A DNA stretch of 64,000 bases from an uncultured Oscillospiraceae bacterium (GTDB lineage Bacteria > Bacillota > Clostridia > Oscillospirales > Oscillospiraceae), in assembly GCA_947627715.1 (NCBI GenBank), contig CANQXK010000002.1, forward strand, positions 62,001 to 126,000, given 5' to 3'. The notes below the pieces were generated by a model. That model had not been told where the DNA came from and did not search any database. It was given only the letters and a program-made list of their open reading frames with translations. A program made the position numbers and the translations under genes. Below, piece by piece: positions 20,777 through 31,167 of this stretch (positions are counted from its first letter, which is position 1; each line of letters opens with the position of its first letter).

Positions 20777-23700
20777 TTATTTTTCAATTTTCCTGCAAAA
20801 GCGCATGAACATGGCCGCGACCTGGGCGCGGGTGGAGTCGCCGTAGGGGCAGAGGGTGGCGGGGCACGTCCCCTGGATGATGCCCTCGCCGACAGCCCAC
20901 TGCATGGCGGCGGCGGCCCAGCCGCTCACCTTCCCGGCGTCGGTGTAGCCGGTCAAGTTGGCAAGCCTGGTCACGTCATAGCCCTTGAAGCTTACATAGC
21001 GGTAGAGGATGGCGGCCATCTGCTCGCGGGTGACGGTGTCGTCCGGGCCAAACTTGCCGTTGCCGTAGCCCAGCACCACCTCGTTGGCGGCGGCCCAGCT
21101 GATGGCGTCGTAGTACCACTGTCCGGCGAGAACGTCGTCGAACCCGGCTCCCCTGGTCACGGCGGGTTCGCCTTCCAGACGGTAGAGGATGGTCACGACC
21201 TCCGCGCGGGTGGTGATGCCGTCGGGGTCGAAGATATGTTCGGCTCTGCCCAGCATCAGCTTGTTTGCGATGACGTAGTCCACGTACTCGTGATACCATG
21301 TGCTCCGATCCACGTCGGTGTAATCGCGGGACGGGCAGTTCACGCCGCCGTCGCAGACAGTCGCGCCGGAGCCGCCGGAGTCGGACGTTTCTTTGAGGTA
21401 GTCGGGCTTGCCGTCGCGGTCATCGTCGAGCGCCCAAACGACATACGCGTTTATAAACCGCGGATCCTTGATCTCCCTGTGGAAGATCCCGTCCTCATCC
21501 AGATAGCCGTTGTTGTCCTCCATTATGCCCGAATCGAGACTCAGGCCGTACCCGATGACCCAGTTGCGCGCATCCTGCTCGCTCTCCGCCACGTTGTGGG
21601 GGTAACCGCTCCAGCCGATCTGTATATAGTGGTGGAGGACCGTTTTGCCGTCCGCGCTGTAGAGATCGGCCTCCTCGATCACGTTGCTGTCCGCAAACAG
21701 GATATCCGCGCCGGGGAAGGGAACGTACTGTCCCACCAGGACATTCTCAATGTCGGCGGGCAGCTTTGCGCTGTTTGTTATCGTCAGAGTGCTCGCCGAT
21801 GTGGGCTTCCCGCCGTCCATGAAGGGCAGGGTGGGCGTGTCGCCCATGCTGTGGTCGCGGAGACGGTCGTTCAGGTCATACCTGTGGGTGTACCGGCTCT
21901 CATGGTAGTCGCGGATGCCGTTGTTGTTCTCGTCGATTGCCCAGACCGCGTACACCTTGGCGTTTTCGCCCTCGGGGATCGTGACCTTGGTTATGAGTAC
22001 GCTTTCATCGGCTTCTTTTGTGATGAACTCATGATTGGCAGCATTCCACTCCTCCTGATCCGTAAAGCCGATCAGCACCGCGCCTTTCTTATAGACCATC
22101 ACGGAGGCGTCCTTAGTCGTCATGAGTGCGGCTTCCTCGCCGGCCACATGGTGGTCGTTGCAGGTGTAGAACAGGCCGTCGACCGCAACGGTGTAGTCGC
22201 GGTTCCCGGTGGCGCCGGGGGCGTAGTACTCCACGTGGTAGTAATTGTCGTCAAACGCCGGCTTGCCCTCAGCGTCCGCCTCGGCGTACACCGCGTAGAG
22301 CGTTACGGTATTTCCGCTTGTCGGCTTCGGGATCGTATACGGGCTTGTCAACAGCTCGACGGACTTGTCAGCTCCACTCGCGTCCTTCCACGTCACCTTC
22401 GACACGGGATCGCCGGTGGCGTTCTTTGCGGTGCTGTCGATTCCCGTGATGTCTTTCGGAATGACAACATCGGTCTTCGCCGTGCTCCAGCCCGCGAATA
22501 CATTAGTACCACTCTTCAGGTCGCACTCGGTCACCAGCGGGTAGCTGGCGCCCACCAGCAACTCCGTCATATCGGCCGGAGTGTCGCCGCTGCCGCCGTT
22601 CGCGTCATACTCCAGCGTCACCTTGTCCGTTTCGTCGTAGTCGGCGATCTTGTTGCCGTTTCTGTCCAGCGCCCAGACCGCGTACACCGGCACGTCCGCC
22701 GCGCCGATCGTCACCTCCGTAACAAACTGTGCGTCCGTCGGTTCCTCGTGGTACGGCTCTGCGCCGCAGTCCACGGTGCTCCAGCCGACGAACACCGCGC
22801 TGCCCATCGCCGTGGTCTTGATCCAATAATATTTTGAATCTTCGCCCTCCACTATGCCCGCGTTCTTATCTGCGGCCTTCTCGTCGGAGGGCTGCCACAG
22901 CGTCACGGTCGTATCGGGCGCGTACGTCATCTTGGTTTTGGCAATGAAATCCGTCGTAGCGCCGCCGCCGTTCCGATTGTACACGACCTTCTGGCCGTCC
23001 TTGACCATGCCGCATTTCAAGCATATCGTGCCGGTCGGGTCCCACTCATGCTTTATCTCTGACTCAAGGCGCGTCTCGGTGAGGTCGCAAGTTTCGCAGT
23101 GCCTTTCCTGCTCACGCTCCATGGTGCAGGGATAGTCGATTGTGTCATCCACGTCTGCCCAATCGGTCCATTGGTGTTCGAGTTTTTTTAGATTGACCTG
23201 GTACTTGTTCGAGGCGCTTGTATCCCCGCAAACCGTGCATTTTGCCACATACGTAATATGTCCGGCAGTCGTACAGGTCGATGGAGCGTCTTCGAGCACT
23301 TCGCAATCCTCGGAAAAGGCATCGGCTGCAAGTGGGTATTGGTGCCCCGTGGCGGGGATTGTAACCGTTATCTTTGTATGACATTCATCACATTCAAAGG
23401 TCATTTCGCCATCTTCCGTACAGGTTGGGTCTTTTGTGACCTCTCCCTCTTTTTCAATGAGCGCGCCGTCCTCGTCTTGGAAGGAATGCTTTGTATTGCC
23501 ACTATGGACCTCATCGATCTCGAATTCCAACAAATCGCCGCATACCGTGCACTTATAATAGATGTGTCCCGAGCCGTATTCCGTGGGGGGAATGTAAAGC
23601 TGCGTAAGCTCCACATAGTCATGTCCGAGAGGGGCGCTTTTCTGGAGCTTCAGTCCGTTAGTGCTGTTATACGCGGTGCAGTTCTCGCAGCGAACAGTTT

Positions 23701-26700
23701 CTATTTCCCCCGTGGTGCAGGTCGCCTCCGTTGTTTCAGTCACAATGTATTTGCGTCCCGTAGGCTCCGTCTCTTTCGTTTCCACTACCTTTCCGCAGGT
23801 CTTGCAGACATAATTATAGACCCACGGGTCGGTGCATTTGTACTGGTCGTTCGGTTCTATCACCTCTTCGTATTCCTCATGCTTATGCTCTTTCGTGACC
23901 AGCTTATCATACTGTATCTCGCAGTCCTTCAACACCTCCAGCATACGCTCCAGGTCTTCCTCGTCCTCGTACTCAAGGGTAATCGTCCCCTCAATACGGG
24001 TGGGGGTGACACTCGCGTAGAGCAGGCCGTCGGGGTAGACCGTCACGTTCCCGAAGATGGTCCCTGTGTGCTCCATATGGCCGTCGTTGCAGTTCATCTC
24101 CAGGGTGCCGCCTGACTTGACCGTCACGTCGCCCGTTATATCGCCGCTGTTGTACAGGTGCGCGCCTTCGGCCAGTTCCACGTTTCCTTCAATCTTTCCC
24201 TCGTTGTGGAAGCTGCTTACGCCCGCGCTTTCGGTCAGAGCGCCTCTCACCGTGATGTTGCCGCGGATCGTGCCGCTCTCTCCGTTCTTTACCAACGAGC
24301 CGTTTTCAAGCCTGATGTCCCCCTCGATGAGGTTGTTGTTGACGACGGTGGATGTATTCCCCTCGTTGTTGAAATAGGAGTAGACAGAGATGTTCCCGTG
24401 GATCTCGCCGTTGTTGGTGAGGTACTCGTCGCCGCTGGCGTAGCCGCCCAGGATGGCCGCCGCGCCGACCACGTAGTTTTGCTCCACGACCATGTCCTCG
24501 CCGATTGTCCCCTTGTTCATCAGGGCGATGTCCAGCGCCCAATCTGTGCCCTCGTCGGTCAGGCTGCAGGTGTTGTTGTAGATCTTTCCGGCGTTGAGCT
24601 GCAGCGCGTCCGCGGAGGGCTGCTGGTAGATGCTGCTGATGCCGGCGCCCATGTTGTCGTGGATCTCGCCGCCGTTCATCTCAAAGGCGCCGCCGTTGTA
24701 GAGATAGACCGTATTGCCCCAGCCGTACTCGCCGCCCCGGAGGCCGACGTTGTGGCTGATCTCGCCGCCGTTCATGTGGAGCTTGGAGTAGGTCTCACCC
24801 TTATTATCACCGTCTTTAACCCCATCGGTTTTTTTATGCAGCTGGATGAAAGTGCCGTTGGTGTCCGCCGCCACGTTGTTGACGATCTTCGTGCCCTCGC
24901 TCATATAGACCTGGGTGCCCTCCATGGCCACGACCAGGCCGCCGTTGCCGCCATAGCAGTAGTTGCCCTCCATGGTAGTGCAGCCGCTCAGATCTATCAC
25001 ATCGTCGTCCGTGTTGCCGATGCAGACCCCGGACCTTGACGCGTTATGCTGGAAAACAGCGCCTTTCCCCGTCACCTCCAGCTTGCCGTCCTCTTTGCTC
25101 ATGAAGTCGATGAAATGCCTGTCGTCGTCATATCCGTCCCCCGCGAAGAAGTTCTCCAGGGTCACGCCGTCCAGCTTGAGGGTGCCGCCGGCGACCTTGA
25201 TGAGGCTCTCGGTGGAGACGACGTTCCCCTCAAGCTCCTTTATGGGGTGACCGCCCTGCGGGTCGACAAGGACATCTATATCGTAGCTTTGGTTCAGTTC
25301 TTTTTCATATTCGAGCTTCTCCTGGTCGATCTCCCAATTGCCCTCGCCGTCGATGGTGACGTTCTTCAGCGTGACGGTGTCGCCCTCACCGACCCGGAGG
25401 ATCGCGCCGGTGTAGTGCTCTTCTTCCGGCACGTCCGCGACGGTCATCAGACCGTAGTCTTCCAGCGCCGTCAGGACAATCTCGGGGTCTATCCTCGGAT
25501 CAGACAGGATGTCCATGAGGATCGGATCGGTGCTTATGGCAAGCGCCGAACCGGGATCGACATAGGTGTCGCGGAGGATCTTGTGACCCTGCCCGTCGAT
25601 GGTCACGGTCCCCACGCCGTCCGGCAGCATGGCCTCAAAGCCGATCCTGATGTCGTCCTTCAGGTAAATGGTGCTGCCGTCCTGCACGTTGTGGAGGGCG
25701 AGGGAGAGACGGCTGTAGGGTGTGCCGGTATTCACGTCCTCGCCGGGACCAGCGACGATGATATTTTTCTCGGCTCCGGCGTCCTGCTTATCATAATTCG
25801 TAAACCGGGTCATCGCGGGGAGGGTAACGGTAGGAGCACTTGACGAAGTCTGCTGTTTACCATTAAGATCGTTGTATGTCACTTCATATTTGGTGAGCAG
25901 GAAGTCGAAGCCCTCGTAGGGGCCTTTCGTGACCACAAGGTAAACATCGAGTTTCCTCATCATGCCGATCTTACCGCGCAGGAAGAGCGTGTCTCCCAAT
26001 TGGAAAGCGGTGAGGGGATAGCCGATTCCCTGCCAATCAGGGCGATAGAAGGTATAAGTCGGTTTGCCGTCTTTGGTTTCTATTACGATCTTGTGCTCTC
26101 CGTCCGTGGTCTCATAGGTGCCGTCCTCCATAAAGAACCCGTCATATTGATCTCCGCGGGCGTAGTATGTGTTCAGGGCGAAGGTGATCTGGGGGTTCAC
26201 GCCGCCTTTATACCCCTTTGCAGCAGACTTTCCGCTGGTCTTGAATTTGTGTGCGGAATGCACAATATCCTTTTCATCCGTATCGTTCCATGTGAGATTG
26301 GCTCTCTGGGTGCCGTCGGTATAATAGGGTTTGGTGTTGCTTGTGCTGACTTTCGCCGTGGTATACCCGTTTAGCCACACGCTGATCGTCCCGGGAACGG
26401 GTGTCGTCTCGTCCTCGTCCACTTTGTTGTTTCCGTTTTCGTCTTTTATAGCGTCAAAGGCCACGTCTGCGGGCAGGCCAGCCTCGCCGGAAGCATAATC
26501 GCCCCAGTAGATCTCACCCTCGTCGGTGATGGTGATCATATAATCCAGATCCGGGTCATCGATATAATAGGTGCCAGGATATTGTTTGAAATATTCCTTT
26601 GCCGCGTCCTTGTTGTCTTCGGTGTAGGCTCTGTCGTTGTTATAAATCTTGGTGCTTAAGGTCTTGTTGTAATTGAGCTGGCTGCTTTTTGCCACTACCC

Positions 26701-29107
26701 CCCATGGGGTTCCGTTCTCATCGGCGTCGTCATATATGTACGTTTGAGATGGGGTGAAATAGGAAGAACCGCCGGCGACTGGTGTAAGTGTAAACGTTAT
26801 CTCTTCGCATTGCGTGATGTTGGCAAGGGTATCATTCGTCTGCACGGTGCGCCATTCGGGAACGACGACCTTGATGTCGGTCACGCCTGTGATTTTCCCG
26901 AAATCGGGCTCCGCCTTGTTCGTTATTTTCTTGTCGATGGTAATATCCATCGCGACGTTTGTAATCGGATGATCGACATTATTAGCATCGAACGCGTGGA
27001 CCGTGACCGTGCCCTCGGTGGTTATTTCGATGTACCATTTATCCTTCGCCGCGGTGGGGCGATAAATGCCGGCGTAGTTCTCGGCGAGGTATTCCTGGCC
27101 CTTTTCCCTGTCCGTGTCGGAATAAAATGTGCCGGTCAGATACTTGCACTCGGTCCCTCCCTCGATTGGGCGGTATATCGGAGTAGCGACCTGTTTTTTA
27201 TTGCTGCCAGAAATGGTATATGCTGTGAACTGGTGGTCGTCCATGGGATTGGTCACGTTGCCGTTCCAATACAGGGTGACGACAGCCGGCTGCGTGCAGG
27301 ACGGGTCGCTGAACCAGCCCGTTACGGGGACCGTGACGCTGGCGAGGTATTTGCCGCCGATGCCCCATTCGCCTTTATCACTACTTGAACTTTCCGGATC
27401 TATATGTTTCGCGTCCTGCGCGAACACGGGAGAGGGGTTTGCTACCGGCGTAAATTCCCCGGCACCGAAATCGGTGTAAATCTTCCATTTGTTGTCCGTT
27501 TCATCTAACTCCACCTTTATTTTCCAGCCGGAGCCGTCGTTGAGGGTGTACGTGCCCTTGACAAACTGACTGAAATAGGCCGCGCCCTCGTCGAGAGTCT
27601 CCTGCCGGGTGTACTTGATCGACGTGGTGAAATTGCGGATGACTTCTGTGATTCCCTCCTTGTAGCAGGGGACGTCGCTGCTGACAGCAAATTGCAGGTT
27701 CGCCGGGTCCCACGTCATGGTGACCGTTGCCCGAGGTACGCTCGGAGCCTTCTTGTTTGCTTCGCTGAACCAGTCCTTATCGGAAAACACGACAGAGGTC
27801 ACAGCCGACTCTTTGTCGGTTTCCTCGCGCCAGTTTGTATTATCGACAACGTAGTAAAGCGGGGTCAGGACCTTACCCTCTCCCATGTGGAGCTCAACGC
27901 TCCCGTCCGTTGCGATCACGATCTTTTCATCCGTTCCGTCGCTTACAAGATAGTCTCCTGCAAAGGGGGCCAGCTGGGACTTTGCAAAATCGGTAAGATC
28001 TCTGCGCTCAAAACGCAAAGCGGGCAAATAGACCACTGTCTTATTATTCTGCTTGTATATTTTATCTTGCTTCGTCGTTGTAAAGTACAGCGCGCCTTTG
28101 CCGTAGCCGGCTGACTTGCTGTCTTCGTCATAGCCCCACGTCAATTTGACATACACGGGTGTGGTCCAGCTTGTGTTTGTGTACCACCCCGGCACAGCTA
28201 CGTACATTTCCTTGACTCTTGAAATATTGTTTGTGGTGGCACCGGCTGTCATGACGGCTTCGTACTTCTCATCACCTTCATGGAGATAGACATGGCCGTT
28301 TTCATCGATCTCGATATACCACTCGCCGATGCCCTCTATGTCGCCGCCGTAGGTATTCCCGTATTCCGTGGAAAGGGCATAGGTGCCGGCGTATTCTTTG
28401 AAATATTCATAGGAGAATATGCCGTCCTCGGCGATAAAGTAGCTGTTTGCTGTAAAGCCTTTGATCGCTTTCTTAGTGGAATCGTAGAGCGTGGTGGCGG
28501 TACACTTGAAGGACTTGTGGGCATATGTTGAACTTACTGCCGTTGTCCAGGTAAGCGTCAGCGTCTGAGTTTTGCTTTTCGACGAATTCCACCAATCATC
28601 GCTTGCAAATACGACCGTCTTGACGGTCTCGCCGCTTGTTGTTATAGAATCTATCGTTGCGTTTTCGGTGCCGTCGCCGGACAGCTTCAGTCCGTCTTCA
28701 CTTACAGTTATCATCCAGTCTGACCCGTCGGGGAGCTTATACTCACCGGGGTATTGCTGACAGAAATTCTGCAAAACTTCTGCATCTTCGTCACTGAGCG
28801 CGATCGTCGCGATCCCCATATCGGAACCGTCAGGGACGTCTTCCTCCGGCACGGGTTCATCCTCCGGCTCGTCCTCCGGCGCCGGCTCTTCCTCCTGCTC
28901 GTCCTGGCCGTCGGGCAGGCCGGGAGCCTCGGAGGGGCTGTCGGAAGCGGTGTCCCCTTCCTCAATCTGGCCCTCTGGAGGCTGTGTCTCGTCTGACGAG
29001 GGCGAACCGTCCGTGGTGCTTTCATCTGCCACAGGCTCTGTAACGCCGCCGGTCTGGGCGAAGGCCGCAGTCGGCAATAGCGCCGCGACCATGACAAGCG
29101 CCAGCAT
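20777..29107 (-). CDS. Giant SLH-anchored surface protein (2776 residues)
   Basis: The N-terminus has a hydrophobic secretion segment ending AAFAQ. An acidic Ser/Pro/Glu/Asp linker follows to about residue 100. Residues 105-1120 hold about seven diverged ~110-residue repeats with a YxGTY/YPGEY-like opening and a WxIxxxxDGxV strand pattern. Residues about 1120-1720 look like a right-handed beta helix (G-G-T-L-K-L-D-G-V turns). Residues 1755-2020 hold CxxCG pairs, and 2040-2560 hold InlB/Listeria-Bacteroides-type repeats (FVGWSTVDCG, VYAVWALD). Three SLH domains end the protein from about 2590. It probably binds host or substrate at the cell surface. The 5' end is odd: no ribosome site and no basic n-region at the ATG; see findings. 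Confidence 0.88.
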   Translation of the reverse strand: MLALVMVAALLPTAAFAQTGGVTEPVADESTTDGSPSSDETQPPEGQIEEGDTASDSPSEAPGLPDGQDEQEEEPAPEDEPEDEPVPEEDVPDGSDMGIATIALSDEDAEVLQNFCQQYPGEYKLPDGSDWMITVSEDGLKLSGDGTENATIDSITTSGETVKTVVFASDDWWNSSKSKTQTLTLTWTTAVSSTYAHKSFKCTATTLYDSTKKAIKGFTANSYFIAEDGIFSYEYFKEYAGTYALSTEYGNTYGGDIEGIGEWYIEIDENGHVYLHEGDEKYEAVMTAGATTNNISRVKEMYVAVPGWYTNTSWTTPVYVKLTWGYDEDSKSAGYGKGALYFTTTKQDKIYKQNNKTVVYLPALRFERRDLTDFAKSQLAPFAGDYLVSDGTDEKIVIATDGSVELHMGEGKVLTPLYYVVDNTNWREETDKESAVTSVVFSDKDWFSEANKKAPSVPRATVTMTWDPANLQFAVSSDVPCYKEGITEVIRNFTTSIKYTRQETLDEGAAYFSQFVKGTYTLNDGSGWKIKVELDETDNKWKIYTDFGAGEFTPVANPSPVFAQDAKHIDPESSSSDKGEWGIGGKYLASVTVPVTGWFSDPSCTQPAVVTLYWNGNVTNPMDDHQFTAYTISGSNKKQVATPIYRPIEGGTECKYLTGTFYSDTDREKGQEYLAENYAGIYRPTAAKDKWYIEITTEGTVTVHAFDANNVDHPITNVAMDITIDKKITNKAEPDFGKITGVTDIKVVVPEWRTVQTNDTLANITQCEEITFTLTPVAGGSSYFTPSQTYIYDDADENGTPWGVVAKSSQLNYNKTLSTKIYNNDRAYTEDNKDAAKEYFKQYPGTYYIDDPDLDYMITITDEGEIYWGDYASGEAGLPADVAFDAIKDENGNNKVDEDETTPVPGTISVWLNGYTTAKVSTSNTKPYYTDGTQRANLTWNDTDEKDIVHSAHKFKTSGKSAAKGYKGGVNPQITFALNTYYARGDQYDGFFMEDGTYETTDGEHKIVIETKDGKPTYTFYRPDWQGIGYPLTAFQLGDTLFLRGKIGMMRKLDVYLVVTKGPYEGFDFLLTKYEVTYNDLNGKQQTSSSAPTVTLPAMTRFTNYDKQDAGAEKNIIVAGPGEDVNTGTPYSRLSLALHNVQDGSTIYLKDDIRIGFEAMLPDGVGTVTIDGQGHKILRDTYVDPGSALAISTDPILMDILSDPRIDPEIVLTALEDYGLMTVADVPEEEHYTGAILRVGEGDTVTLKNVTIDGEGNWEIDQEKLEYEKELNQSYDIDVLVDPQGGHPIKELEGNVVSTESLIKVAGGTLKLDGVTLENFFAGDGYDDDRHFIDFMSKEDGKLEVTGKGAVFQHNASRSGVCIGNTDDDVIDLSGCTTMEGNYCYGGNGGLVVAMEGTQVYMSEGTKIVNNVAADTNGTFIQLHKKTDGVKDGDNKGETYSKLHMNGGEISHNVGLRGGEYGWGNTVYLYNGGAFEMNGGEIHDNMGAGISSIYQQPSADALQLNAGKIYNNTCSLTDEGTDWALDIALMNKGTIGEDMVVEQNYVVGAAAILGGYASGDEYLTNNGEIHGNISVYSYFNNEGNTSTVVNNNLIEGDIRLENGSLVKNGESGTIRGNITVRGALTESAGVSSFHNEGKIEGNVELAEGAHLYNSGDITGDVTVKSGGTLEMNCNDGHMEHTGTIFGNVTVYPDGLLYASVTPTRIEGTITLEYEDEEDLERMLEVLKDCEIQYDKLVTKEHKHEEYEEVIEPNDQYKCTDPWVYNYVCKTCGKVVETKETEPTGRKYIVTETTEATCTTGEIETVRCENCTAYNSTNGLKLQKSAPLGHDYVELTQLYIPPTEYGSGHIYYKCTVCGDLLEFEIDEVHSGNTKHSFQDEDGALIEKEGEVTKDPTCTEDGEMTFECDECHTKITVTIPATGHQYPLAADAFSEDCEVLEDAPSTCTTAGHITYVAKCTVCGDTSASNKYQVNLKKLEHQWTDWADVDDTIDYPCTMEREQERHCETCDLTETRLESEIKHEWDPTGTICLKCGMVKDGQKVVYNRNGGGATTDFIAKTKMTYAPDTTVTLWQPSDEKAADKNAGIVEGEDSKYYWIKTTAMGSAVFVGWSTVDCGAEPYHEEPTDAQFVTEVTIGAADVPVYAVWALDRNGNKIADYDETDKVTLEYDANGGSGDTPADMTELLVGASYPLVTECDLKSGTNVFAGWSTAKTDVVIPKDITGIDSTAKNATGDPVSKVTWKDASGADKSVELLTSPYTIPKPTSGNTVTLYAVYAEADAEGKPAFDDNYYHVEYYAPGATGNRDYTVAVDGLFYTCNDHHVAGEEAALMTTKDASVMVYKKGAVLIGFTDQEEWNAANHEFITKEADESVLITKVTIPEGENAKVYAVWAIDENNNGIRDYHESRYTHRYDLNDRLRDHSMGDTPTLPFMDGGKPTSASTLTITNSAKLPADIENVLVGQYVPFPGADILFADSNVIEEADLYSADGKTVLHHYIQIGWSGYPHNVAESEQDARNWVIGYGLSLDSGIMEDNNGYLDEDGIFHREIKDPRFINAYVVWALDDDRDGKPDYLKETSDSGGSGATVCDGGVNCPSRDYTDVDRSTWYHEYVDYVIANKLMLGRAEHIFDPDGITTRAEVVTILYRLEGEPAVTRGAGFDDVLAGQWYYDAISWAAANEVVLGYGNGKFGPDDTVTREQMAAILYRYVSFKGYDVTRLANLTGYTDAGKVSGWAAAAMQWAVGEGIIQGTCPATLCPYGDSTRAQVAAMFMRFCRKIEK

Positions 29108-29228: not shown

Positions 29229-30026
29229 TTGAATAATTTTTTCTCAATCAATCAGGTGGGCCAGAGCTGCGGAGTGTCCCGGTCTACGCTCCTGCGGCTG
29301 GAGGACCGCGGGCTGCTCACCCCGGCCAGGGTGGATCAGGAGACGGGCTACCGCTGGTATGACAACCACAACGTCAGCCAGGTCATGCAGGTCCTGTCCT
29401 TTTTGCAAATGGGCCTGACCTATGACGACGCCGTCCTCTACTACCGCGCCAACGGGACGTCCCAGGAGCTTCTGGAGCGGATAGAGGAGCGTTTCCTGCT
29501 GCTCAAACGGGCCTATGAGGAGATAAAGCTCCGGGTGGAAAAAAAGGACCATTTGAGCTTTTCGTTCGTGGACCTGCCGGAGTACGTCTGCTTCTGCCGG
29601 GAATACCAGGGGACGACGGTGGAGGACCGCTATTGGGCCATGTACAACCTCTACCACGAGGCGGTGGAAAAGGGCTACCGGCTTCTTAAATCCGAGCCGC
29701 TGTTTATCATCAACAAGCGCACCGATTACCTGGACAGCGCCTTTGAGGACAAGGAGATGGACTTTATCTGCTGCGTCCCGCTGGAGCCGGACGAGCCGCC
29801 GGAGGAGGCGGTGACCATCCCCGCCTGCCGGGGCTTCTCCTGTCTGGGCTACGGCGGCTACTCCCACAGAGCCTACGCCTTCAACGAGTTCGGCCGGGAG
29901 ATTCGGGAGCGTGGATTGAAGCCCACGGGCTACGTCCGCGTCCTGGGCCTGGTCGCCTCCTACACCGGGAGGGACATCGACTCGGAGAACTACGTCTCCC
30001 GGCTGGTGGTGCCGGTGGAGGGGTAA
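29229..30026 (+). CDS. MerR-family regulator with GyrI-like effector domain
   Basis: The 265-residue protein has a MerR winged helix-turn-helix (residues 5-75: FSINQVGQSCGVSRSTLLRL, then TGYRWYDNHNVSQ). A coiled-coil dimer helix follows (80-110), then a GyrI-like small-molecule-binding domain (115-265), as in BmrR. The start is TTG at 29229 after GAGAAGG. Such proteins bend 19-bp-spacer promoters when bound to an effector, and exactly such a promoter drives the divergent surface-protein gene. The gene ends 36 bp before the inverted repeat at 30062. Confidence 0.9.
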   Translation: MNNFFSINQVGQSCGVSRSTLLRLEDRGLLTPARVDQETGYRWYDNHNVSQVMQVLSFLQMGLTYDDAVLYYRANGTSQELLERIEERFLLLKRAYEEIKLRVEKKDHLSFSFVDLPEYVCFCREYQGTTVEDRYWAMYNLYHEAVEKGYRLLKSEPLFIINKRTDYLDSAFEDKEMDFICCVPLEPDEPPEEAVTIPACRGFSCLGYGGYSHRAYAFNEFGREIRERGLKPTGYVRVLGLVASYTGRDIDSENYVSRLVVPVEG

Positions 30027-30061: not shown

Positions 30062-30080
30062 ACAAAACAACAATTTTGTC
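30062..30080 (+). repeat. Left 19-bp inverted repeat
   Basis: The sequence ACAAAACAACAATTTTGTC is an exact reverse complement of 30303-30321. Identity stops at both ends, so the repeat is exactly 19 bp. Confidence 0.9.
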
Positions 30081-30302
30081 AGCGCCGCTCCCGCCCTCGG
30101 CCGCATGAAAGGCCGGGAAATACCGATTTTTGACGCGGCGGAGGTATAAATGGGCGCAGAAAACCTAAGCCGCAAAAAATAATCGTTTTGCGGCTTAAGT
30201 TTTCATGCCATTTTCAAACAAACATCTTGTATTTTCGACGCGCTTGTGGTAACATTTCTATGTATAGGTTGCGTCCCAACCTGCGGCGGGCCATCCAATC
30301 AG

Positions 30303-30321
30303 GACAAAATTGTTGTTTTGT
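30303..30321 (-). repeat. Right 19-bp inverted repeat
   Basis: This is the exact reverse complement of 30062-30080. It lies 9 bp from the end of the recombinase gene. Confidence 0.9.
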
Positions 30322-30330
30322 GATGAACCG

Positions 30331-31167
30331 CTACGAGACAAGCCCCAGCCGGTCCAAGGCGCGGGCGTGTTCCGCGCCGGTGGAGATGAGGTAGATGCGG
30401 GTCGTCTCAATGGACGAGTGCCCCAGCACGTCGGACAGCTTCACGATGTCGCGGGTGACCCGGTAGAACATCCGGGCGAACAGATGCCGCAGGTTGTGGG
30501 GGAACACCTTGGAGCGTTCCACCCCCGCCTCTTCGCACAGGGCCTTCATCTCCGCCCAGATTTGCCGCCGTGTCAGCCCCTTTCCGCTTCTGGTGAGAAA
30601 AATCTCGCCGGAGGCGATTTTTTGCTGTCTGGCGTACTTTATAAGCTTCCGGCACAGCTTGCCGGGGAGCATGATGACGCGAATTTTCCCCTTGAGGGAG
30701 ATCTGCGCCTGCCCGTCCCGCGCCGCCTCCACGGTGATATATTGTACTTCGCTGACACGGATGCCGGTGGAGCAGATGGTCTCCATTAAGAGCGCCAGCC
30801 GGGGCTTTCCGCCGGCGGCGGCCAGGAGGCGGTCGTATTCCTCCCGCGTCAGCTCCCGGCTCTGATCCCGGAACACACGCCGCTGGAGCCGCAGGGCACG
30901 GACCCGGCAATCCTCCCAGCCCAGAAACCGCAGAAGGGCGTTCACCGACGCCACCATGGAATTGACCGTGGCGGGGGCGTAGCCCTGGGCCGCCAGCCCG
31001 TCCCGCCACGCGGCCACGGCGTCCTTTGTGACGGGCTGGAGGCCCATGTGCGCGGCAAAGCAGGCCGCGTCCCGGAGATACTTCTCCACGGTCCCCGCGC
31101 TCTTTTCCTCCTGCCGCAGATACGCGGCGAAGCTTTGCAAATTCGGGTCCAACGTTCTCATTTCCAT
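30331..31167 (-). CDS. Tyrosine recombinase/integrase
   Basis: The 278-residue protein has an N-terminal SAM-like core-binding domain (residues 8-90) and a catalytic domain. Catalytic residues are visible: Arg in CSTGIRVSEV, the HxxR box HNLRHLFAR, LGHSSIETTRIY with the second His and the Tyr nucleophile, and a Lys in SLKGKIR. It is of the length of stand-alone XerC/D-like invertases, with no Arm-type domain. The ATG at 31167 has a GGAGG site. With no phage or transfer genes nearby and matching inverted repeats at its 3' end, I infer a DNA invertase role. Confidence 0.9.
   Translation of the reverse strand: MEMRTLDPNLQSFAAYLRQEEKSAGTVEKYLRDAACFAAHMGLQPVTKDAVAAWRDGLAAQGYAPATVNSMVASVNALLRFLGWEDCRVRALRLQRRVFRDQSRELTREEYDRLLAAAGGKPRLALLMETICSTGIRVSEVQYITVEAARDGQAQISLKGKIRVIMLPGKLCRKLIKYARQQKIASGEIFLTRSGKGLTRRQIWAEMKALCEEAGVERSKVFPHNLRHLFARMFYRVTRDIVKLSDVLGHSSIETTRIYLISTGAEHARALDRLGLVS

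What the first reader, a model, noticed from the sequence alone, without database searches (positions are those of the whole stretch)
30062..30321. Candidate invertible DNA switch beside a tyrosine recombinase
Seen: exact 19-bp inverted repeats at 30062-30080 and 30303-30321 flank 222 bp, and each repeat has the form ACAAAA-6 bp-TTTTGT. Known: tyrosine invertases recombine at inverted core sites made of two arms around a 6-8 bp crossover. The recombinase gene ends 9 bp from the right repeat and no phage or conjugation genes are near. Inference: the segment flips.
Basis: partly seen in the sequence, partly recalled or inferred. Interest (0 to 1): 0.82.

Follow-up and report, generated by a model that had tools for sequence, protein, structure and literature searches.

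The report
Flipping promoter switch beside its recombinase
A short stretch of DNA in a gut bacterium very probably flips back and forth, using an enzyme encoded right next to it, to turn a surface-protein gene on or off; it belongs to a widespread and mostly known kind of switch.

Summary
Two identical 19-bp repeats (ACAAAA-CAACAA-TTTTGT-C) face each other 222 bp apart, 9 bp from the end of a tyrosine recombinase gene; in 100 shuffles the longest was 16 bp. The inversion reading is well supported: a relative (L047) carries the same segment inverted between like-oriented flanks, as does one of two sister loci in G005. The pairing is a conserved module: 62 of 67 testable loci of a further scan have such repeats near the recombinase stop, against 3 of 61 control stretches. 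The 6-bp core does not differ between the two sites (0 of 576 positions; arms 49 of 1152; 96 loci), although 60 different cores occur. Across the family the segment looks like an insulated promoter. In the window it points, weakly supported, at the recombinase: OFF for the gene on the far side. In many relatives that gene is a large secreted surface protein or a prepilin. In the window it would be a giant SLH protein, but a MerR gene lies between and the SLH start region lacks 226 bp. This is a promoter inverton; a Clostridia inverton-recombinase link is in print, so it is a new member of a known kind. Antisense feedback on the recombinase is possible and untested.

The parts
30062..30080 (.). 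left recombination site: arm ACAAAA, core CAACAA, arm TTTTGT, plus C
   Evidence: register from the palindromic arms of 96 of 106 loci
30303..30321 (.). right recombination site, inverted copy of the left site
30081..30302 (.). invertible segment (222 bp)
   Evidence: same segment inverted in L047 relative to window and L041
30159..30204 (.). hairpin upstream of the promoter, perhaps a terminator acting in both directions (inference)
   Evidence: terminator-like on + strand only; folding z about -6.9 on both strands; I9; in 45 of 102 distinct segments a stem of 9 or more pairs against 50 of 510 shuffles
30227..30232 (+). -35 element TTGTAT of the promoter in the segment, pointing right in this orientation
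   Evidence: same place in L041, L042, L046, L050 (52-53 bp from the faced arm). The strict consensus scan found no promoter here
30250..30255 (+). -10 element TAACAT of the same promoter, 17-bp spacer
   Evidence: geometry conserved in 88 of 101 segments against 76 of 505 shuffles
30331..31167 (-). tyrosine recombinase, 278 aa, convergent with the switch; the presumed invertase
   Evidence: PF00589 E 1.9e-22 and PF02899; XerA/XerD-like; R137, H224, R227, H250, Y259 invariant in the 16 aligned sequences
29229..30026 (+). MerR-type regulator lying between switch and surface-protein gene; among the relatives compared found at this place only in L041
   Evidence: PF13411 E 1.5e-8
20777..29107 (-). 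giant S-layer-homology surface protein (2776 aa), the likely target gene; its leader, ribosome-binding site and first eight codons are missing relative to L041
   Evidence: SLH E 3.4e-24; 226-column gap at 29107/29108 against L041

Best explanation
30062-30321 is a promoter inverton: a self-contained ON/OFF switch. The neighbouring tyrosine recombinase binds the ACAAAA/TTTTGT arms of the two sites and exchanges strands at the 6-bp core, so the 222 bp between them inverts. The segment carries one outward promoter with a hairpin behind it. In the orientation seen here the promoter points right, into the 3' end of the recombinase gene (antisense), and the hairpin stops transcripts that enter the segment, so the leftward gene gets nothing: OFF. 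After inversion the promoter points left and drives the gene beyond the left repeat: ON. In relatives that gene is often a secreted surface protein or a prepilin. In the window it would be the SLH protein, reached through the antisense strand of an intervening merR gene. SHOWN: the repeats, the conserved pairing, identical cores, inverted orientations between and within genomes, the promoter geometry at family level, leftward genes in most relatives. INFERRED: that this recombinase is the catalyst, that flipping still happens in this strain, the promoter of the window itself, that the SLH gene is the target, and terminator function.
For: Inverted orientations in L047 and L067. Pairing in 62 of 67 testable loci against 3 of 61 controls. 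Core mismatches between left and right site 0 of 576, arms 49 of 1152, with 60 distinct cores among 96 loci. Recombinase divergence tracks arm divergence (Mantel r 0.42, 0 of 2000 permutations as high) but hardly core divergence (r 0.05, 210 of 2000). Promoter score 13 or more in 48 of 101 segments against 14 of 505 shuffles; -10 box 35-65 bp from the faced arm in 88 of 101 against 76 of 505. Hairpins enriched: 45 of 102 against 50 of 510. Nearest ORF of 150 aa or more left of the switch reads away from it in 82 of 100 loci (81 once the window's antisense ORF is put right), 72 of them starting outside the segment and 45 with a hydrophobic N-terminus by a crude rule; further left the balance is 45 away, 35 towards. 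SLH, Ig-like, beta-helix, cadherin-like, SpaA or prepilin domains among 20 left-hand proteins scanned. Presumed catalytic residues intact. In print: group-139 invertons, 32 of 33 from Clostridia, are tied to one tyrosine-recombinase group, and orientation shifts of two of them in culture are shown (PMC11892184).
Against: No reads, so no flip was seen in this organism. The window's promoter is weak: the strict scan finds none, and the score difference between directions is below my 2-bit rule (9.7 against 8.0); it is called rightward only with a positional prior. Here the gene next to the switch is merR, reading towards it, so the ON promoter would first run antisense to merR. The SLH gene lacks its usual start region. 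In one search, 15 of 100 loci have the nearest ORF reading towards the switch and 3 have none; the five near-identical G024 switches (L087, L090-L093) show no leftward neighbour. Five of 67 loci miss the pair at the threshold (L106, L117, L143, L149, L164); L142 passes but looks unlike the family; L053 misses it. Ten of 106 loci gave no palindromic-arm register and are outside the core count. A hairpin of 9 pairs is absent in 57 of 102 segments. That the adjacent enzyme is the catalyst rests on association only.
Confidence: 0.86

Rival explanations
1. The switch exists but is locked or decaying in this strain: the recombinase is silent or the target is dead, so the repeats are a relic.
For: The SLH gene has lost its leader and start region relative to L041; merR separates switch and target; the promoter is weak.
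Against: Both 19-bp sites are perfect and the recombinase is a full-length ORF with its conserved residues. Several relatives have less perfect arms, e.g. L041.
Confidence: 0.09
2. The segment works at RNA level like the C. difficile cwpV switch: transcription starts outside and one orientation forms a terminator.
For: A strong hairpin lies in the segment. The cwpV segment holds no promoter (PMC2784873 abstract). The strict promoter scan of the window finds none.
Against: The hairpin folds about equally well on both strands, so it would discriminate poorly between orientations. A promoter-like site at fixed distance from one arm is found in 88 of 101 segments against 76 of 505 shuffles.
Confidence: 0.04
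3. The repeats are terminal repeats of a small mobile element and the recombinase is its transposase.
For: Up to 16 recombinase copies per genome; near-identical copies in G024.
Against: The site occurs as one pair in the own genome. Paralogous loci in G019 share the surface gene, switch and recombinase together. The segment is found inverted in place, and the core is invariant between sites, as site-specific inversion requires. Empty sites were not searched for.
Confidence: 0.01

Closest known systems
Clostridia inverton group 139 with tyrosine-recombinase 'invertase group 35' (PMC11892184; sections 6 and 8 and passages read)
   Same: Short inverted repeats, segments near 205 and 227 bp in the two examples whose coordinates I saw (Clostridium sp. 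D5; Intestinimonas butyriciproducens), a tyrosine recombinase nearby in nearly all cases, orientation shifts seen in reads.
   Different: I could not compare repeats or recombinases directly: the IR motif is in a supplement not readable here. The main text has no hit for 'antisense' or 'convergent'.
C. difficile RecV switches (cwpV, flg; PMC2784873 abstract, PMC5386303 and PMC5903667 passages)
   Same: Tyrosine recombinase, about 20-bp inverted repeats, 154-195 bp segment, phase-variable surface structures.
   Different: RecV acts on several switches with dissimilar repeats, and the cwpV segment has no promoter. Here a recombinase lies beside each switch examined (the loci were found through the recombinase), and the segment appears to carry the promoter. 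RecV was not compared by sequence.
E. coli fimS with FimE/FimB (recalled, plus one sentence in PMC5386303)
   Same: Promoter inverted by a neighbouring tyrosine recombinase; precedent for orientation feeding back on the recombinase transcript.
   Different: FimB/FimE are about 200-aa proteins without an N-terminal SAM-like domain (recalled). fimE reads into fimS, with RNA-level feedback.
Bacteroides invertible promoters with local tyrosine recombinases (recalled; PMC11892184 passages)
   Same: Invertible promoters for surface structures with a nearby recombinase.
   Different: Bacteroides promoter type and other repeat motifs (recalled; not compared here).

Membership tests
promoter inverton (invertible promoter) | segment bounded by inverted repeats | tested here: met
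promoter inverton (invertible promoter) | both orientations exist | tested here: met
   between relatives and between sister loci of one genome; not within the window's own species
promoter inverton (invertible promoter) | promoter inside, pointing out of one end | tested here: inconclusive
   met at family level; in the window alone the call is weak (none; ambiguous)
promoter inverton (invertible promoter) | orientation controls transcription of a neighbouring gene | not testable with these tools
   leftward neighbour in 82 of 100 loci, but no expression data
tyrosine recombinase / Xer-type invertase | catalytic R-H-R-H-Y and SAM-like N-domain | tested here: met
   profile match to 4a8e and 1a0p; the role of these residues is recalled
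tyrosine recombinase / Xer-type invertase | site of two inverted arms about a 6-8 bp crossover that must be identical in both partners | tested here: met
   0 of 576 core mismatches against 49 of 1152 arm mismatches, 96 of 106 loci
housekeeping XerC/XerD | above the NCBIfam equivalog cut-off | tested here: not met
   XerD 108.5 bits, cut-off 329.6; XerC 98.2, cut-off 335.15
inverton group 139 / invertase group 35 of PMC11892184 | repeat motif and recombinase in the same cluster | not testable with these tools
   motif only in supplements; class, spacing and enzyme type agree
mobile element with terminal repeats | dispersed copies of the repeat-bounded unit | tested here: not met
   one pair of sites in the own genome; not tested for relatives such as G024

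The most novel reading that the evidence does not exclude
The module regulates its own flipping. In the OFF orientation the promoter fires antisense into the convergent recombinase gene and damps it, so OFF is long-lived; in ON the damping is gone and the switch returns to OFF. This would account for the OFF excess in assemblies (68 OFF, 20 ON, 8 unclear of 96 loci; 32 OFF-only, 13 ON-only, 2 mixed, 4 unclear of 51 recombinase clusters) and for the convergent placement. Many loci carry a private 6-bp core (60 cores among 96 loci), so that several such modules could work side by side in one cell with little crosstalk.
Probability: 0.25. Interest if true: 0.65.

Novelty: new member of a known kind. 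Interest (0 to 1): 0.42.

Why it matters
It turns a lone repeat pair into a recognisable module (surface gene, switch, convergent recombinase) that can be found by sequence alone across gut Clostridia and some relatives. It predicts which surface proteins, pilins and glycan genes in uncultured gut bacteria are phase-variable. The arm/core split found here suggests a rule for which enzyme acts on which switch and why paralogous switches need not cross. The antisense arrangement gives a directly testable idea about why more copies sit OFF than ON.

Tried and rejected
Rejected: a second site in the own genome on contig C72 (2 mismatches), which lies inside a methyltransferase ORF. The three-mismatch hits (L004-L006) were not followed. 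A phage origin of the recombinase: in all 150 phage records with a match the best place is under 60% identical, the best 49% in an unannotated faecal fragment (8 rows seen). Exact cassette exchange between switches of one genome: in G024 the stretch identical to L087 runs 141-165 bp past the left arm and 30-118 bp past the right arm, so it does not stop at the cores and I do not claim it. Terminal repeats of a mobile element: see rivals.

Limits of counts. One search looked at 61 loci: L082 has no recombinase; of the 60 others 49 gave a pair at 14 of 18 or better (no control in that call). I judge the L100 pair spurious (438 bp from the stop) and dropped it. L053 has none despite 4 kb, and 10 have none with 265 bp or less of contig left. 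In one search, 13 of 80 loci were too short. L101, L102 and L114 are the same contigs as L043, L049 and L067: they are inside the 62 of 67 but were dropped and later; L060 was also dropped from then on; exact duplicates were dropped. Pairs were chosen by identity and the register partly so, which could favour identity in the middle of the site. One search stopped with a printing error after the results quoted. (89 of 100 leftward) cut the sequence at the switch and over-counted; one search replaces it. The loci are related and the counts are not independent.

Full report
OBSERVATION. Each is ACAAAA-CAACAA-TTTTGT followed by C. The recombinase stop codon lies 9 bp past the right one. In 100 shuffles that keep local dinucleotides, the longest exact inverted repeat with a 100-400 bp spacer was 16 bp.

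THE ENZYME. 30331-31167 (minus) encodes 278 aa with a Phage_integrase domain (E 1.9e-22) and a SAM-like N-domain. It lies far below the XerC/XerD equivalog cut-offs, and its family profile matches solved XerC-like, XerD and XerA structures. R137, H224, R227, H250 and Y259 are invariant in 16 aligned sequences, 15 relatives of 46-90% identity and the window; that these are the catalytic positions is recalled. The own genome has one further homologue at 47% (C12) and three remote ones. Of 60 genomes (the own one included) 29 have a match at E 1e-20, with 16 matches in one.

THE PAIRING. Of the 80 loci, 67 have at least 350 bp past the recombinase stop. 62 of 67 show an inverted pair of 15 or more of 18, mostly within tens of bp of the stop and with a spacer of 150-350 bp. 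The neighbouring control stretch shows one in 3 of 61. The switch DNA itself is found in only 6 of 34 genomes of the genus, own included, and over 250 bp or more only in G022 and G018 besides the own: the architecture is conserved, the sequence changes fast.

SITE ANATOMY. For 96 of 106 loci a register with palindromic 6-bp arms exists. Between left and right site of one locus the six core positions differ in 0 of 576 cases and the arms in 49 of 1152. Across loci the core varies (60 distinct cores among 96) while the arms follow the recombinase (Mantel r 0.42, no permutation of 2000 as high; core r 0.05, 210 of 2000). This is what a tyrosine recombinase with a 6-bp crossover region predicts: arms are read by protein, cores must match each other. 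Core ends are not free: position 7 is T in 86 and position 12 is A in 80 of 96.

INVERSION. The interior of L047 (genome G018) is homologous to that of the window (202 nt, 81%) and of L041 (220 nt, 84%) in inverted orientation, while the recombinase and a piece of the outer left flank run the same way. In genome G005, the loci L064 and L067 carry the same 150-bp interior at 97% in opposite orientations, with matching flanks on both sides. These are fixed assemblies, so they show past inversion, not present flipping.

WHAT FLIPS. The segment has a hairpin (30159-30204; folding z about -6.9 on either strand) and downstream of it a sigma70-like promoter TTGTAT-17-TAACAT (30227-30255). Taken alone this promoter is weak: a strict scan finds none, and the two directions differ by less than my 2-bit rule. 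Across the family it is solid. The best promoter scores 13 or more in 48 of 101 distinct segments against 14 of 505 shuffles, and its -10 box ends 35-65 bp from the arm it faces in 88 of 101 against 76 of 505. In L042, L046 and L050 the same position holds TTGAAT-17-TATAAT. Hairpins of 9 or more pairs occur in 45 of 102 segments against 50 of 510 shuffles, so they are enriched but not universal.

TARGET. The nearest ORF of 150 aa or more left of the switch reads away from it in 82 of 100 loci, towards it in 15, and is absent in 3 (6 of 106 loci had too little sequence). The window is among the 82 only through an antisense ORF, so 81 is the better figure. 72 of the 82 start outside the segment, 44 within 110 bp of the left arm, and 45 have a hydrophobic N-terminus by a crude rule. 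Further left the balance is 45 away and 35 towards, so the excess is local. Of 20 left-hand proteins scanned (several cut by the end of the fetched stretch), L051, L057, L064 and L067 have SLH domains; L083, L094, L098 and L099 prepilin motifs; L078 is a sugar aminotransferase in what looks like a glycan locus; L042, L043, L045, L046, L052, L054, L055 and L061 have surface-type repeats or domains (Ig-like, beta-helix, cadherin-like, adhesive, SpaA, GLUG and others); L047 only a match below its cut-off; L049 and L080 none. In several close relatives I see a ribosome-binding site and start codon within about 100 bp of the left repeat. The five near-identical G024 switches have no leftward neighbour by this test.

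THE WINDOW IS UNUSUAL. Between switch and SLH gene lies a merR gene reading towards the switch; L041 shares it, and L047 keeps only an 84-bp stretch homologous to the merR start region of the window. An ON promoter would here run antisense to merR before reaching the SLH gene. Relative to L041 the window lacks 226 bp right at the SLH start, with CAGGGC at both ends of the gap in L041, so that the leader, ribosome-binding site and first eight codons are gone; the remaining 2776 codons are open. The SLH gene may be weakly translated or not at all in this strain, or this may be an assembly error.

ORIENTATION. With a weak positional prior 68 loci point at the recombinase, 20 away, 8 unclear (of 96); by clusters at 70% recombinase identity 32 OFF-only, 13 ON-only, 2 mixed, 4 unclear of 51. 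Without the prior it is 66, 18 and 23 of 107. The OFF excess and the convergent placement suggest antisense feedback on the recombinase. I mark this as speculation; selection in the animal would give the same bias. fimE/fimS is a precedent for orientation acting on recombinase mRNA (one sentence in PMC5386303).

LITERATURE. PMC11892184 (sections 6 and 8 and passages) reports 33 invertons of group 139, 32 from Clostridia, with nearly always a group-35 tyrosine recombinase nearby, including an Intestinimonas inverton with about 227 bp between repeats whose orientation shifts in culture. This probably covers the present family, though I could not compare motifs. PMC10939037 (passages) speaks of Bacteroidales in the passages seen and has no hit for Firmicutes, Clostridi or recombinase. 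The listings of searches (titles and starts of abstracts, 8-20 rows each) showed no paper on the convergent module, the arm/core rule or antisense feedback for it. They do not prove absence: the library lacks most subscription journals and holds no bioRxiv preprints.

VERDICT.

Noticed in passing
window 29107/29108: 226-bp gap at the start of the SLH gene relative to L041, with CAGGGC at both ends in L041; leader, ribosome-binding site and first eight codons missing.
   Followed up: partly
L087, L090, L091, L092, L093 (genome G024): Five paralogous switches are identical over 284 bp plus 141-165 bp on the left (compared with L087), while pieces of the adjacent recombinase genes are about 86-97% identical: sequence homogenisation between switches, or an assembly effect. 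L051, L057 and L059 in G019 look similar. None of the five has a leftward neighbour.
   Followed up: partly
L058, L060 (and L081): Loci with three copies of the site instead of two, which could give more than two states.
   Followed up: no
L066, L068, L069, L072, L077, L086, L088, L089, L095, L096: Contigs end within 265 bp of the recombinase stop in these 10 of 60 loci, and within 350 bp in 13 of 80: assemblies seem to break at the switch, as mixed orientations or repeats would cause.
   Followed up: no
L083, L084, L085, L094, L098, L099: The ACATTA-type switches of one subfamily stand before large prepilin-like genes (N-methylation motif in L083, L094, L098, L099; in L084 and L085 by the sequence): possible phase-variable pili.
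   Followed up: partly
L082 (G000 contig C72) 128-3473: A reverse transcriptase and a DNA methyltransferase on a short contig of the own genome, perhaps a defence islet.
   Followed up: no
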